Shown one piece after another: positions 16,286-64,000 of a DNA stretch of 64,000 bases (position 1 is the first letter of the stretch; every line of letters starts with the position of its first letter). The DNA lies in NCBI GenBank assembly GCA_012516125.1, contig JAAYXB010000067.1:1-64000 (forward strand), given 5' to 3'. Source of the stretch: Bacillota bacterium. Lineage in GTDB: Bacteria > Bacillota > SHA-98 > UBA4971. The position numbers and the translations under genes are program-made. Under the pieces are notes generated by a model that did no database searches, had not been told where the DNA came from, and saw nothing but the letters and a program-made list of their open reading frames with translations.

Positions 16286-16775
16286 AGTCCAACGCCACCC
16301 CCTCGCCTGGCCTCGCCTCGACCCTATCATATGCGGACGCCTCCCTGCCTGCGCCCGGCCAGGCGCTGGCTCGTCCCACCCGAAGCCGGGGCAAGCTGGG
16401 CAATCGCACCATCGCCCTGCACGAGGCAAAGCCGTGGCCGCTCGAGTTTGATGCCCAGCAAGGCACAGCTGCGGCGGCCCAAGTTTGACGACCGGTCAGG
16501 CCCAGCCACGGCGACGCGTCGATCAAAGAGGAGTTGCGTCAGGCAAGAAGAAGCACTATACTTGGGATACAACCGGTTGCACCCTGCACGCCGTCCGGTG
16601 GAACGATGCAGGTTGCCAGTCCGGTCGCCGGTCCGGTTGCCGACCCGGCCGTCGGTTCGGTTGCCCATCTGGCCGCCGGTCTGGTTGCTGACGCGGCTGT
16701 CGGTCTCGTCGCCGGTCCGGTCGCCGGTCGGGCCGTGTCGGCCGGCACCAGAGTGAAGCCGAGGGGGATGACGAA
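16286..16775. other. Divergent upstream region with low-complexity tract
   Basis: Lies between the L,D-transpeptidase (minus) and the second LacI gene (plus). 16612-16740 is a degenerate repeat built on CCGGTTGCCG/CCGGTCGCCG units. The only clear signals are the promoter and operator at 16534-16581 described separately; no gene is seen. Confidence 0.5.
16534..16581 (+). promoter_or_regulatory. Sigma-A-type promoter with overlapping LacI operator
   Basis: TTGCGT (16534-16539), a 17-bp spacer, then TATACT (16557-16562). Six bases further lies TACAACCGGTTGCA (16568-16581), whose inner CAACCGGTTG is a perfect palindrome with central CG, as in LacI-family operators. A repressor bound there would cover the start site. 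The promoter points at the LacI-type gene starting about 195 bp downstream. Confidence 0.7.
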
Positions 16776-21142: not shown

Positions 21143-21755
21143 ATCCTAACACACCTCCTTCTCCCACGTGTTACATCCATAGCCTACCACGTAGATCCAG
21201 CAGATGTCAGTATTCCTGGAGAGGCAGCATCCGGCGGGTCCCGTGTTGACCGACTGCAACCCCGCCGCAGGACCAGAGTTGAGGGATGATGCCGTCATGC
21301 CACCGCTTGGCGGCGGAGCGCACCGCGTACGGCCCGCACATGGTTCAAATCCGAGCTTAGCCACCCACGGCAGCCGCGATGTACCAGCGCTTCATTCGCG
21401 TTAGAGACGTCATCAGTAAAGAGGTGAAAGCGGCGAAAGCACCCGTAGCGATCCCTGAAGGAATGATCCAACACCTCGCGAATTCGTCGTGATGGAGACT
21501 GTTGGACTTCCCCAATATGTGCCAGCTTGGCCGGGCACGGCGACGGTTTTGCGCGATCCAACCGGGCTGCGTTGACATGACGCGGGAAACATCAACAGTC
21601 TCGTCATGAGCGACTATGCAGGACAGACCAGGATGGGCGCCAGCGCCGCTGGCTGGATCTTGCGAGATACGGGCCACCCAGTCGGGTCAGATGATTCACT
21701 TGAGGGTACTATATGTGAGTGCCGCAGACCTGCGTTATAATCGAGGTGGAAACCA
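21143..21755. other. Intergenic stretch of 0.6 kb
   Basis: No gene with a credible start or domain. GGTTCAAATCC at 21342-21352 resembles a tRNA T-loop but no tRNA can be folded around it. TATAAT (21736-21741) lies 14 bases before the next start codon, too close to serve a transcript carrying the visible ribosome binding site. Confidence 0.45.
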
Positions 21756-43925: not shown

Positions 43926-44537
43926 AGTGTCCACGCCATGCTACAACCTGCCCACCATTGCGTACAAACAGCTGGTTAAGAGGATTTAAGCCATGCTCGT
44001 CCTGTGTCTCACTCTGGCAACAGCTGTCCGCTCTTCCGTACGCCGTTCTGTGAGCAGCTCATGAAACCAGAGGTACGTGCCCGGATCGACATGTGTCCGC
44101 AGTGTCGCACATGTCCTGCTGGCCGGACACGTCGCGGCCGCGGCGTCACCGCCTCGGACGCACGGGGTCGCAATCGTCCAGTGCGCACATGCTTCCCAAG
44201 GTCCCCGCCGCTCTGTCTAGATTCTCGCACAACGCAAGTTGCGGAAGCAGTACCGTTACCAGTACCGAATCCGTCGGCACGTGCCAGGGGCGCGTCCGTA
44301 GATCAATACGCGCAGTGGCCGGGAACCACAACACCGCCCTGGCGGCAGGCCGGCGATTCACTCGCGCCGCGGCTTCGCGCCTTTCTTCTGTCCGAATTGT
44401 GTGGCCAGCAAATGCGTCAGGAGTGTGTCGACACATATTGCGCGAGTGGCTCAATGAGGCTATGAGAGCGGATTTAGGTCTCGACACCATGGGAACTCCG
44501 GCTACGGGAGGATGTGGATTCCCGGGCACAGACTTCG

Positions 44538-44736
44538 CTAAGTGAGGGTGCGTTAGTTCTCGCCCATCTTCCAGTAGTTGCCGGGTTGCCAGTGTTGCAC
44601 TCGCGGACGGCGCCCCAAGCGGGGCGCCTTGACAAGAATCCGGCCCGTCTGGCTAGGCAGCCGGATTTTGACACCCCTCGTGCAATCACCGGCAACCCCT
44701 CCCAAAAGTCGGGAGCATTTCTGCGCCCTCACTTAG
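44538..44736 (+). repeat. Dispersed inverted-repeat element, copy 4 (complete long form)
   Basis: 199 bp bounded by CTAAGTGAGGGTGCG and its inverted partner TGCGCCCTCACTTAG. Compared with copy 3 it has about 75 extra bases holding GGCGCCCC-AAGC-GGGGCGCC and AATCCGGC...GCCGGATT hairpins, the same module as in copy 1. It ends 15 bp from the comFC stop codon and may act as its terminator. Confidence 0.88.
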
Positions 44737-59699: not shown

Positions 59700-62108
59700 C
59701 TACCGCCGCAGCCTCTCCGCAAGCCCGGAGTAGCGCCGGTCTTGGGTGCTATTCTTGACGGCGATGGCGAGGGCCTTGGGCGTGCCGACCAGCACCACGA
59801 GCCGCTTGGCCCGGGTGATGGCTGTGTAGAGGAGGTTTCGCTGGAGCATGATGAAGTGCTGGGTGGTGATTGGCATCACGATGACTGGGTACTCGCTGCC
59901 TTGGCTCTTGTGGACCGAGATGGCGTAGGAGAGCACAAGCTCGTCCAGCTCGTGCTGCTCGTAGGTGACGCGCCGCATGCCGTCGGGCTCCACGAACGCC
60001 ACCACAACCTCCTGGTCCTCCGTGTCCACCTTTACCACGCGGCCGATGTCCCCGTTGAACACCATCTTGTCGTAGTTGTTGCGGATCTGCATGACCTTGT
60101 CGCCCTCGCGGAGCACAAGCCCGCCCAGGCGCATCTCCTGCTTACCGGGGGCAGCGGGATTGAGCGCGTCGCGCAGGACGGCGTTGAGGTTTTCGACGCC
60201 GGTGACCGTGCGCCGCATCGGCGCCATGACCTGGATGTCGTCGATCGGGTCGCACTTCGCGTAGGCGGGCAGGCGCCGCACCACGAGGTCCTTCACGAGG
60301 GCGGTAACCTTCTCGGGGTCGTCCTCGGCGATGAAAAAGAAGTCGGCCTTCGCCCCCTCGGTGACGTTTCTGTTCAGGACGGGCATCTCACCTCTGTTGA
60401 CACGGTGGGCGTTGGTAACTATCATGCTCGTCCTGGCCTGCCTGAATATCTCTGTGAGCCGTACCACCTCGACCGCGCCCGAGGAAATGACGTCGCGCAG
60501 CACCGACCCCGGCCCCACCGACGGCAACTGGTCCGCGTCGCCCACCAGGACTAGCCTGGCGCCGGGGCGCACCGCCGCGAGAAAGTAGCTCATGAGCTGG
60601 ATGTCTATCATGGACGTCTCGTCCAGGATGATTACGTCAGCGTCGATGGGCGCCCCCTCGTTGTGCTCGAAGGACATCTGCCCCTGCCCAAAGCTCACAC
60701 CGAGAAGCCGGTGGATGGTCTTCGCCTCGCGCCCGGTGGTCTCCGCCAGCCTCTTCGCCGCCCGCCCCGTGGGTGCAGCGAGCGCGACGCGCAAGGCCCC
60801 GGCCTCGAAGATGCGGAGCATTGTCCGCACGGTGGTGGTCTTCCCTGTGCCCGGCCCGCCCGTCAGGACGAGCACGCCGCACCGGACGGCCTTCTCCACA
60901 GCCGCCCGCTGCTCCACGCTGAGCTGGACCCCGTCGCGTCGCCCCAGTTCGGCGAGGAGCCGGGCCACATCGACCGGGAGCGGCTTCGGCGGGCGGCCCG
61001 CCAGCGCGGCGAGCCTCTCGGCGACGCTCGTCTCGGCGCGGTAGAGGTAGGCGAGATAGACGGTCTTCTCGCCCTGCACCGTGTCGCGGATGATCGCGCC
61101 GCGCTCCTCGAGCACGGGCAGCGCTGCCGCTACCAGGTCCTGCCCCACCCCGAGGACCTTCGCAGCCTCGTCGATAAGCGCTTGCTCGGGGTAATACACG
61201 TGGCCGTCCGCGGTAAGCTCGTTCAGGACGTACACGATGCCTGCGCTAACCCGCTCCGCCGAGGTCGGCTCCACGCCAAGCTCAACCGCGATCTTGTCCG
61301 CAGTCTTGAAGCCGACCCCGTGGATCTCGTCGGCAAGACGATACGGGTTCTCGCGGACAGCCTGGATGGACGCGTCGCCGTAGCGGCGAAATATCTTGAT
61401 GGCGAGCGTGGGGCTCACTCCATGGCCCGCCAGAAACATCATGACCTTGCGGATCTCCTTCTGCTCCTGAAAGGCGCGGGCTATCGTGGCGGACTTGATC
61501 GGCCCCACGCCCTCGACCTCTGTAAGCCTCTCGGGATGATGCTCGATGACGTCGAGCGTGGCGAGGCCAAAGTGGGAAACGAGTTTCTTTGCGGTCACCG
61601 GCCCTATGCCTTTGATGAGGCCTGACCCGAGGTACTTCTCGATCCCCTTCTGCGTCGCAGGGACGACTGACTCATACTTCTCGACCTTGAACTGCCGCCC
61701 GTACTCGGGATGGTCCACCCACTCTCCCTCGAGAGCGAGCGTCTCGCCGACGCTGATGAACGGGAAGGTGCCCACCACGGTTACCGGAAGCGCTCGCCGC
61801 TGCCCGGTTCGCGCTCCCGGCGCGCTCCCTGCTGCGGGCGGGCGCCGCAGGTGTGCCGCACCTCCGCCAGCCCGCGCGTCCGTCCTGGTCCCCGAGCCTG
61901 CGCCATCCCAGGCATCCTGGGCACCCCGGGTATGCCGGGCACCTCCTTCGGCGGCCTTATCGGCCGCCCCACTGGCACCACCCTGCGCGTGTCCACTCCC
62001 GCCGGCCGGTCCGTCGTCCCAGTGGGTGCATGCAATCCTGGCCACAGTGTAGAAGTTGTCCTCGTTGCGGTATGTGATCCGCTCGACCGTCCCTTGAATC
62101 GAAGGCAT
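59700..62108 (-). CDS. recD2: RecD2-type ATP-dependent DNA helicase
   Basis: 802 aa superfamily 1B 5'-3' helicase of the RecD2/YrrC family, acting in DNA repair without RecBC. OB-like N-terminus (QGTVERITYRNEDNFYTVAR), helix-hairpin-helix repeats (SGLIKGIGPVTAKKLVSHFG, about 155; GVGPIKSATIARAF), Walker A LTGGPGTGKTTTVRTML (about 415), LDETSMIDIQLMSYFL, VLVGDADQLPSVGPGSVL, and the C-terminal YAISVHKSQGSEYPVIV with LYTAITRAKRLVVLVG. A Gly/Ala/Arg-rich insert splits the OB region at about 33-95, as in other genes here. GGAGGG lies before the ATG. Confidence 0.95.
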   Translation of the reverse strand: MPSIQGTVERITYRNEDNFYTVARIACTHWDDGPAGGSGHAQGGASGAADKAAEGGARHTRGAQDAWDGAGSGTRTDARAGGGAAHLRRPPAAGSAPGARTGQRRALPVTVVGTFPFISVGETLALEGEWVDHPEYGRQFKVEKYESVVPATQKGIEKYLGSGLIKGIGPVTAKKLVSHFGLATLDVIEHHPERLTEVEGVGPIKSATIARAFQEQKEIRKVMMFLAGHGVSPTLAIKIFRRYGDASIQAVRENPYRLADEIHGVGFKTADKIAVELGVEPTSAERVSAGIVYVLNELTADGHVYYPEQALIDEAAKVLGVGQDLVAAALPVLEERGAIIRDTVQGEKTVYLAYLYRAETSVAERLAALAGRPPKPLPVDVARLLAELGRRDGVQLSVEQRAAVEKAVRCGVLVLTGGPGTGKTTTVRTMLRIFEAGALRVALAAPTGRAAKRLAETTGREAKTIHRLLGVSFGQGQMSFEHNEGAPIDADVIILDETSMIDIQLMSYFLAAVRPGARLVLVGDADQLPSVGPGSVLRDVISSGAVEVVRLTEIFRQARTSMIVTNAHRVNRGEMPVLNRNVTEGAKADFFFIAEDDPEKVTALVKDLVVRRLPAYAKCDPIDDIQVMAPMRRTVTGVENLNAVLRDALNPAAPGKQEMRLGGLVLREGDKVMQIRNNYDKMVFNGDIGRVVKVDTEDQEVVVAFVEPDGMRRVTYEQHELDELVLSYAISVHKSQGSEYPVIVMPITTQHFIMLQRNLLYTAITRAKRLVVLVGTPKALAIAVKNSTQDRRYSGLAERLRR

Positions 62109-62248
62109 GTCTACCCTCCGCGCGAGGTCTTGGGTGCTTCCGCTTCCGCTTCCTCATTTTAACATGTGGTGCTCCCGGAGTAAACGCCTATCGGCGATGC
62201 TGTTGTCTCTTGCCTGTCATCGACCGACAGCGGCAGCCGGGATACTAA
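62109..62248. other. recD2 5' flank leading into the palindrome array
   Basis: 140 bp with no gene. The array described next begins at 62249, so recD2 promoter signals should be here, but none is obvious. Confidence 0.4.
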
Positions 62249-63214
62249 CGATCCCTGCACGACCAAGTTCCGGGAAGACCTGGGCCTGGGGGGATCAACA
62301 CGAGTCAGAATCTGGTCACCTGGGAACCACCCCTGCTGCCCTCCCTCACCGAAACCAGTTAAGTTGGAGCACCAGGGATCAGATGCTGCGCGAACATGGT
62401 CCTCTGGGGACCAGCTTGGGACCACGCCCTGGTCCTCTCGTGACCAGGACGCCTCGGACGCCGCCGGGGTGGTGCATCAGGGACCAGGTTGCCCGCGAGG
62501 TTGATCCCTTGGGGACTATCCGCACGCAAGTCCTGGTCCCCTGGGGACCACGGGTTCTTGAACATCTCGCAAGGTGGTTACGTGGGGACCAGGTGAAGGG
62601 CCAGGTTGGTCCCCTGGGGACCATCTTCGCGCGTAACCTGGTCCCCAGAGGACCAGATCCGGCATCCTCGTGGAGCGAGTGTCAGGAGGGTGGGTCTCTG
62701 GTAACCAGATTTCGCACGGGGTTGGTCCCCCAGGGACCAGCTACGCGCCAATCCTGGTCCTTTGAGGACCACCCGTCCACGGGCATCCGTGAAGGTGGTC
62801 CCCTGGGGACCAGGCGGCGGACGAACCTGAGTCCCTGGGGACCATCTTTGCGTGGATTCTGGTCACCAGGGGACCAAGTTCGGCGTTTTGCCGGTTGAAC
62901 CGCGACGAGGGTGGGTCTCTGGTAACCAGATTTCGCACGGGGTTGGTCCCCCAGGGACCACCCACGCGCAAATCCTGGTCCCCTGAGGACCAGCCGTCTA
63001 TGGCCGCCCGGGAAAGTGGACACGTGGGGACCAGGTGGCGCGCGAAGTTGGTTCCCTGAGGACCATCTCCGCACGGATCCTGGCTACCAGAGGACCAGTG
63101 CTGGCCTTCCGCCGGGTGAGGCGCGAGGAGGGTGGGTCTCTCGTGACCACTTTTCACGCGAGGTTGCTCCCAGAAGGACCAGCCGCGCAAGAGATCCTGA
63201 GATCCCAGGGACCA
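62249..63214. repeat. Array of 27 phased 17-bp palindromes with a 221-bp higher-order period
   Basis: Consensus site TGGTCCCCTGGGGACCA, exact at 62534, 62607 and 62796; 18 of 27 sites keep the right half GGACCA. Sites come in triplets with 15-bp spacers. Triplets are joined alternately by 24- and 35-bp spacers: starts 62470, 62691, 62912, 63133 and 62575, 62796, 63017 are exactly 221 bp apart. Two early spacings are off by one base, and the 35-bp link expected before 62470 is 23 bp. The stretch 62691-62739 is identical to 62912-62960. Spacers are conserved by position, not unique, so it is not CRISPR. The 32-bp step rotates frames, so it is not coding. Confidence 0.9.
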
Positions 63215-63527
63215 CCCAGCGACGAACGCAGCCACGCGGCCACGCGTCGATCAAGTTTGACGCAGAAAAGGCGGCCGCGTCCTCAGCCAGGGGGCAGTCG
63301 CGGGTTCTGGGCCTGAACACGCAACATGTACGGGGCCAAGCTCATAGTTGAACTAGCGGGGCGCTACTCGCAATCCGCTTCGCCGCCAAGCAGGTAGGCC
63401 GACTTCATCCCCACATTCTGGAGCGACACTCTGGAGCGGTCCATCTATAAGCAGCCCAGCGCCGAAGATGGCGACATTCTGGCCAGCCTTTGTCGTGACC
63501 CGCGGCAAGCGGAGAGAGTTGTCTTTC
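63215..63527. other. Spacer between palindrome array and deacetylase gene
   Basis: About 310 bp. A short repeat, GACACTCTGGAGCGG-like, occurs near 63410-63440. No gene is seen. Confidence 0.4.
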
Positions 63528-64000
63528 CTATTCTGCGCCAGTTGCTCCGGTCGCAGCGTCTGCGGCGCCCATGCCGGTTCCGGACGCGGGCGCGGCCGGG
63601 GCGCCTTGCGGCTGGCCTGCGGGCTCAGGCGAAGACCCCGCCCCTGCTGCCCCGTCGTGGCCCCCGCCTGTTCGCAGTGTGGGCCTCCCGTCGTCGCCCG
63701 AGAACAGCGCTGACAGGGGGACCAGCTCGTATCCTTGGGACGTCAGCCCCTCAATGAGCGCAGGCAGCGCGCGGGCAGTTTGCTCGCGCACGTGAAGGAG
63801 AACGATGGCCCCCTCCTTTGCGCCCGAGGTGACCCGCTGGACGATCGCCGCTTGGCCGGGGTTGCGCCAGTCGTCGGGGTTGAGAGTCCACAACACCGTC
63901 GTAGTGCCCTCTTCCTTCGCGATCTGCCGGATCTCGTCGTTGTAGCTTCCGTAAGGCGGCCGGAACCACCTTGGGGTCACGTTTGCAGCGGCCTTGACGG
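63528..64000 (-). CDS. Polysaccharide deacetylase (NodB type), 3' part
   Basis: C-terminal part of a carbohydrate esterase family 4 enzyme that removes N- or O-acetyl groups from peptidoglycan or other polysaccharides. Visible: NodB motif 3 (RPPYGSYND), motif 4 (VLWTLNPDDWRNP) and motif 5 (AIVLLHVREQTARALPALIE). A Gly/Ala/Pro-rich tail of about 45 residues follows (AGQPQGAPAAPASGTGMGAA). The frame stays open to the window edge (VKAAANVTPRWF), so motifs 1 and 2 and the start codon lie beyond 64000. Confidence 0.9.
   Translation of the reverse strand, partial: VKAAANVTPRWFRPPYGSYNDEIRQIAKEEGTTTVLWTLNPDDWRNPGQAAIVQRVTSGAKEGAIVLLHVREQTARALPALIEGLTSQGYELVPLSALFSGDDGRPTLRTGGGHDGAAGAGSSPEPAGQPQGAPAAPASGTGMGAADAATGATGAE

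What the first reader, a model, noticed from the sequence alone, without database searches (positions are those of the whole stretch)
62249..63214. Phased array of 27 palindromic sites with a 221-bp higher-order repeat: candidate platform for an unknown DNA-binding protein
Seen in sequence: 17-bp sites of consensus TGGTCCCCTGGGGACCA occur in triplets. Centre-to-centre steps are 32, 32, 41, 32, 32, 52 bp, sum 221, repeated from 62470 to the end. At 10.5 bp per turn these steps are about 3.05, 3.9 and 4.95 turns and 221 bp is 21.0 turns, so all sites face one side of the helix. The site at 62755 (TGGTCCTTTGAGGACCA) shows a paired change that keeps dyad symmetry. Spacers are conserved by class: first spacers mostly end in GT, second ones in CC. 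Inference: cooperative binding by a dimeric protein (segregation, nucleoid organisation, silencing or replication control), or a transcribed structured RNA. I know no named element with this layout.
Basis: partly seen in the sequence, partly recalled or inferred. Interest (0 to 1): 0.92.

Follow-up and report, generated by a model that had tools for sequence, protein, structure and literature searches.

The report
Mobile repeat carrying phased binding sites
The 27 evenly phased palindromes are real, but they form the core of one of roughly 35-40 copies of a protein-less mobile DNA element that spread through an uncultured Bacillota genus, and the pattern of conservation suggests that each palindrome is a docking site for a still unknown two-part DNA-binding protein.

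Summary
The array is real: 27 sites at 62249-63214 with 32/32/41/32/32/52 steps. Vector strength is 0.97 near 10.5 bp; random step sets reach this in 0.15% of trials. It is not a single locus. The same array, flanked by unique genes, occurs at about 35-38 places in this genome and about 44 in one congener (JACIXY01). It is diverged and rare in a third species and absent from three others. Complete copies end in inverted repeats (CTATAGATAGCCAACYTC). The same ends bound stand-alone ~115-bp MITEs. Relatives show the flanking genes joined without the array. So the window holds a decayed copy (about 62232-63451) of a composite, MITE-bounded, non-autonomous element whose internal sites have been amplified, laid out much like a BOX element. 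In the sites, TGGTCC-N5-GGACCA is about 2.8 times less variable than the spacers (p=8e-19) and the centre is free. There is no compensatory change, no strand bias and no fixed orientation to genes. That favours base-specific binding by a dimer and speaks against an RNA or cruciform. No binding protein, transposase, target duplication or extra ParB was found. The most likely reading is a mobile operator array. Whether it serves the host or only the element is open.

The parts
62232..63451 (+). Window copy of the composite mobile element; head end truncated, tail end decayed
   Evidence: Left limit: shared motif GGCAGCCGGGATAC just before the first site, as in other copies. Right limit: tail-flank profile match and TIR remnant CCATCTATAAG.
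62249..63214 (+). Array of 27 sites, consensus TGGTCC-N5-GGACCA, phased at 10.5 bp
62249..62446 (+). Head part of the array: two triplets with the head spacing (32,32,52,32,32 to 33, then 40 to 41), shared by all copies with intact heads
62470..62690 (+). 221-bp unit 1 (two inverted-symmetric triplets)
62691..62911 (+). 221-bp unit 2
62912..63132 (+). 221-bp unit 3
63133..63214 (+). Tail triplet with the terminal 33-bp step, as in other copies
63215..63451 (+). Tail flank; its outer ~115 bp is a decayed MITE-type unit ending in a TIR remnant
59700..62108 (-). recD2-like helicase gene beside the array; in G001, G002 and G005 this gene and the deacetylase gene are separated by about 380-600 bp without the array
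63528..64000 (-). Polysaccharide-deacetylase-like gene (runs past the window end), the other neighbour
   Evidence: identification from sequence motifs and my own knowledge, not scanned against Pfam
16509..16513 (.). Place where congener G004 carries an array that this genome lacks; cannot be told from a deletion here
21274..21364 (-). Solo tail-type MITE unit without an array

Best explanation
The array is the core of a protein-less mobile element bounded by MITE-type units with terminal inverted repeats CTATAGATAGCCAACYTC (shown). The element spread to dozens of intergenic places in the common ancestor of this species and its congener, moved in trans by an unidentified transposase (transposase and transposition inferred). 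Inside it, one 17-bp operator-like palindrome with its 15-bp spacer was amplified, in alternating spacer orientation, into 9-30 copies kept in one helical phase; a 338-bp copy with a single palindrome survives in species G001 (structure shown, direction of change inferred). The conserved half-sites TGGTCC/GGACCA are most likely bound by a homodimeric protein. Many dimers lining one face of the DNA would form a cooperative nucleoprotein patch of about 1 kb (inferred). Copies are reshuffled by recombination between arrays (inferred from syntenic arrays that are not nearest relatives).
For: Dispersed copies. Bounded ends and TIRs; six complete copies of 1115-1691 bp, 19-24 sites each. Stand-alone 113-119-bp MITEs with the same ends, also in array-less G002. 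Empty sites: POR and PHP genes about 24 bp apart in G001 but 1.6 kb apart here; two more gene pairs; recD2/deacetylase. One-site element in G001. Site constraint: outer heterozygosity 0.067 against 0.188 in spacers and 0.186 in the centre, p=8e-19; in the four best syntenic pairs 61/848 against 130/1096, p=7e-4. Phasing. Base-specific rather than pairing constraint. No gene overlap in 41 arrays and mixed orientation. Recombination.
Against: No autonomous transposase with these ends was found. No target-site duplication is visible. No binding protein was identified, and ParB-family genes number two in every congener, with or without arrays. In the oldest shared array (G000:C30, G004:C2, G001:C33) sites are not better conserved than spacers, although power is low and that region is about 95% identical overall. 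Inserts are replaced by unrelated DNA at one locus, so insertion is not always clean.
Confidence: 0.6

Rival explanations
1. The sites serve only the element: they are bound by its transposase or an accessory protein and are conserved because well-bound copies spread better. The host gains nothing.
For: Site constraint is strongest between paralogous arrays and weaker between vertically inherited ones. Arrays sit between MITE units and are species-limited.
Against: Some constraint remains after the species split (61/848 against 130/1096). The sites do not resemble the inverted repeats: 8/12 best match, reached by half of shuffles.
Confidence: 0.3
2. The array is a host platform (nucleoid organisation, division-site control or silencing, like dispersed Noc or SlmA sites) that spread by mobility and was then co-opted.
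For: Phasing, base-specific constraint and intergenic placement on about 30 contigs.
Against: Four congeners live with few or no arrays. No extra ParB-type gene. The oldest shared array shows no site constraint.
Confidence: 0.25
3. The array is transcribed and works as a structured RNA or as DNA cruciforms.
For: The unit folds far better than shuffles, z = -7.8, and triplets are inverted-symmetric.
Against: Fold strength follows from the repeated palindromes. No compensatory change above expectation. G.U-type mismatches 134 against 148 on the two strands. Both orientations and all gene arrangements occur. No Rfam family above its threshold.
Confidence: 0.07
4. A neutral tandem repeat: phasing and site similarity are by-products of recent duplication of a 221-bp unit.
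For: Homogenisation between arrays is evident, and deletions run from site to site.
Against: Within one array the six site classes share a consensus while spacers have diverged. Outer site bases vary about 2.8 times less than spacers and centre. Three step lengths all fit 10.5 bp.
Confidence: 0.12

Closest known systems
BOX elements of Streptococcus (PMC3049150)
   Same: Non-autonomous composite repeat: fixed end modules with inverted-repeat ends around a variable number of internal tandem modules; intergenic; spread in an old burst
   Different: Internal module here is an operator-like palindrome kept in helical phase (9-30 copies, about 0.5-1 kb); end sequences differ; GC-rich host
MITEs in prokaryotes (PMC10969869)
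   Same: Terminal inverted repeats, no coding capacity, stand-alone ~115-bp copies with the same ends
   Different: Array-bearing form is 1.1-1.7 kb; no target duplication or partner transposase found
BIME/REP with RAYT transposase (PMC2817692)
   Same: Arrays of palindromes with spacers in alternating orientation between genes
   Different: No RAYT-type gene (Y1_Tnp) in either carrier genome, no compensatory mutation, 17-bp operator-like sites
F-plasmid centromere sopC/parS-F (twelve 43-bp repeats with ten 16-bp inverted repeats, PMC6238139)
   Same: Works-like analogy: regular tandem array of dimer-binding palindromes in an approximately helical period
   Different: Dozens of chromosomal copies instead of one, no extra ParB-type gene, no par operon beside the array

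Membership tests
MITE | Terminal inverted repeats | tested here: met
   CTATAGATAGCCAACYTC at both ends; position-specific matrix scores 12-36, with no shuffled hit at 13 or above
MITE | No coding capacity | tested here: met
   No predicted gene overlaps any of 41 arrays; 32- and 221-bp periods are not multiples of 3
MITE | Target-site duplication | tested here: inconclusive
   None consistent at stand-alone or complete copies; copies are old
MITE | Partner IS with matching ends | tested here: inconclusive
   No transposase found near unpaired TIRs; genomes are fragmented
MITE | Small size (below about 600 bp) | tested here: not met
   Stand-alone units are 113-119 bp, but array-bearing copies are 1115-1691 bp
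BOX element | End modules around variable number of internal modules | tested here: met
   Head and tail flanks fixed, 1 to about 30 internal sites
BOX element | boxA/boxB/boxC sequence homology | not tested
   No alignment to BOX sequences was made; hosts are distant
BIME/REP | RAYT (Y1_Tnp) gene in the genome | tested here: not met
   PF01797 absent from G000 and G004
BIME/REP | Palindromes kept by complementary mutations | tested here: not met
   Double changes near independence expectation over 416 sites
Plasmid-type centromere (sopC-like) | Cognate ParB-type protein | tested here: not met
   Two ParB_N genes in all six congeners regardless of arrays; non-ParB centromere binders not tested
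Plasmid-type centromere (sopC-like) | Found on plasmids or phages | tested here: not met
   No match in plasmid, phage or viral collections
Structured RNA | Covariation and consistent strand | tested here: not met

The most novel reading that the evidence does not exclude
A transposable element whose cargo is a helically phased, high-density operator array for an unknown dimeric protein, so that about 40 cooperative nucleoprotein patches of about 1 kb were seeded through a bacterial chromosome by mobility and may reorganise or silence it.
Probability: 0.25. Interest if true: 0.78.

Novelty: new variant of a known kind. Interest (0 to 1): 0.57.

Why it matters
If right, bacterial mosaic repeats can carry and amplify arrays of protein-binding sites in strict helical phase and seed dozens of copies per chromosome. 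That gives a natural system for asking how dispersed operator arrays arise, and whether they serve the host (nucleoid layout, silencing) or the element. The single-site G001 copy, the array-less MITEs and the array-bearing copies lie within one genus, so the order of events can be tested.

Tried and rejected
RNA: Rfam (only miRNA-family matches below their gathering scores fell on arrays), strand bias, covariation. The strong fold (85) follows from the palindromes. Plasmid, phage or virus origin: no matches. SopB-like partner: none. RAYT partner: none in carriers. Autonomous transposase near lone TIRs: none in the ORFs listed, judged by reading the translations, not by a family scan. TIR resembling array sites: not above shuffles. 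Spacing constraint through indel depletion: array gap/substitution ratio 0.051 against 0.060 in flanks, so not shown. Clean transposition at window 16509: the 5-bp overlap looked like a target duplication, but right-end-like sequence at the junction allows a deletion. Clean empty site at G004:C150: replaced by unrelated DNA (54). GTTTGGCC palindromes of G001 as a second dispersed family: local only. Naming the organism: congener G004 equals JACIXY01 (MAG-64, Bacillota); no paper found. Hits of the array pattern in Bacteroides and Frankia were inspected and differ in layout.

Full report
OBSERVATION. The window holds 27 sites between 62249 and 63214, in triplets, with the stated steps and a 221-bp period from 62470. 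Up to 3 mismatches gives 28 matches, all in the array, against 0.35 by shuffling. A vector-strength test gives 0.974 near 10.5 bp; random choices of the three step lengths reach that in 0.15% of trials.

NOT UNIQUE. The own genome (3.24 Mb, 98 contigs) has about 316 sites at up to 3 mismatches, in about 35-38 places, 76-88% identical to the window array over most of their length, often at contig ends as expected of repeats. G001 has a few diverged ones. G002, G003 and G005 and the neighbouring genus have essentially none. Plasmid, phage and viral collections have none.

ANATOMY OF THE ARRAY. Copies follow the same plan: a head of two triplets, further triplets separated alternately by 41 and 52 bp, and a tail with a 33-bp step. 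In 416 sites the steps are 32 (233), 41 (60), 52 (43) and 33 (24). Second spacers are inverted relatives of first spacers (8.25/15 identity against 3.9 in direct orientation and 4.45 expected), so each triplet is symmetric about its middle site.

WHAT IS CONSERVED. Over 42 heads, the outer 12 bases TGGTCC/GGACCA have heterozygosity 0.067, the centre five 0.186 and the spacers 0.188 (p=8e-19). Double changes that restore pairing do not exceed independence at most positions, and G.U-type mismatches are 134 against 148 on the two strands. This pattern fits base-specific recognition of two half-sites, not a stem. In syntenic G000-G004 pairs the sites are also less changed than spacers (133/1787 against 409/2434). 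That comparison is partly paralogous; the four most orthologous-looking pairs give 61/848 against 130/1096, p=7e-4, and the oldest shared array shows no difference, with little power. Indel depletion could not be shown.

WHAT CARRIES IT. The flanks of the arrays end sharply. The ends are inverted repeats, head CTATAGATAGCCAACCTCAAACTTGAACGAG and tail ...CTCAACTCCTGAGTTGGCTATCTATAG. The pattern occurs 14-15 times in each carrier genome, 5 times in G002 and 3 times in G001, against 0-1 in the reversed-pattern controls of those genomes. Many hits are stand-alone MITEs of 113-119 bp. Array heads and tails carry such units, so complete copies are composite: MITE-type unit, array, MITE-type unit, 1115-1691 bp in total. 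G001 has a 338-bp copy with both flanks and one palindrome. The window copy has lost its head unit and keeps a decayed tail end near 63451.

INSERTION. Relatives show array-less arrangements at the same gene pairs: POR and PHP about 24 bp apart in G001 against 1.6 kb here; FAD-oxidase/ABC; DUF401/aldo-keto reductase; recD2/deacetylase. No target duplication is evident. One polymorphic locus is not clean, and the window site at 16509 may be a deletion. Mobility therefore rests on bounded ends, shared TIRs and multiple empty sites; the transposase is unknown.

RECOMBINATION. Syntenic arrays are often not each other's nearest relatives although flanks are 88-96% identical. G001 shortened the shared old array by a deletion between two GGGACCACC sites. 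Short-read assembly could contribute chimeras.

CONTEXT. None of 41 arrays overlaps a predicted gene, and tandem, divergent and convergent settings and both array orientations occur. Neighbour genes are mostly ordinary metabolism and transport.

MECHANISM. Shown: mobile-type ends, dispersal, site constraint, phasing, lack of covariation. Inferred: a transposase acting in trans; a homodimer reading TGGTCC/GGACCA; cooperative coating of one DNA face. Whether selection acts through host benefit or element spread is open; the data lean slightly to the element.

COMPARISON. BOX elements (PMC3049150) share the plan of end modules around amplified internal modules. BIMEs (PMC2817692) differ by lack of RAYT and of compensatory change. 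The F centromere (PMC6238139) is a works-like analogue only; no extra ParB exists. The combination of MITE-type ends with a helically phased operator-like array was not met in the papers searched, which is a limited search.

Noticed in passing
window 44537-44736: A separate ~200-bp dispersed repeat, about 10 copies per carrier genome and one in G001; presence/absence at window 17917 against G004 L168:706-899.
   Followed up: partly
L192 (G001:C31:12640-12830): The recD2 intergenic region of G001 has its own short local array of about six different palindromes (GTTTGGCC-N3-GGCCAAAC type) at ~34-bp steps.
   Followed up: partly
L048 (G000:C89:6.4-15.7 kb) versus L078/L166: Two arrays in inverted orientation 8 kb apart; G004 joins the outer flanks differently, so recombination between arrays inverted the segment, or an assembly error.
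   Followed up: no
L185/L188 (G001) and L186/L189 (G003): recD2 matches in two pieces overlapping at residues 317-345 within one long frame in G001, suggesting an internal insertion or duplication.
   Followed up: no
L070, L081, L094, L115 (uncultured Bacteroides): Runs of GGACCA/GGTCC hairpins just after genes, a different, tighter ladder-like repeat.
   Followed up: partly
L160/L067/L177: The Rex-like/array/ATPase locus is 95-96% identical between G001 and G000 although other genes are 84-90%, hinting at exchange between species.
   Followed up: no
L053:3456-4700: A caspase-domain (Peptidase_C14) protein gene beside an array.
   Followed up: no
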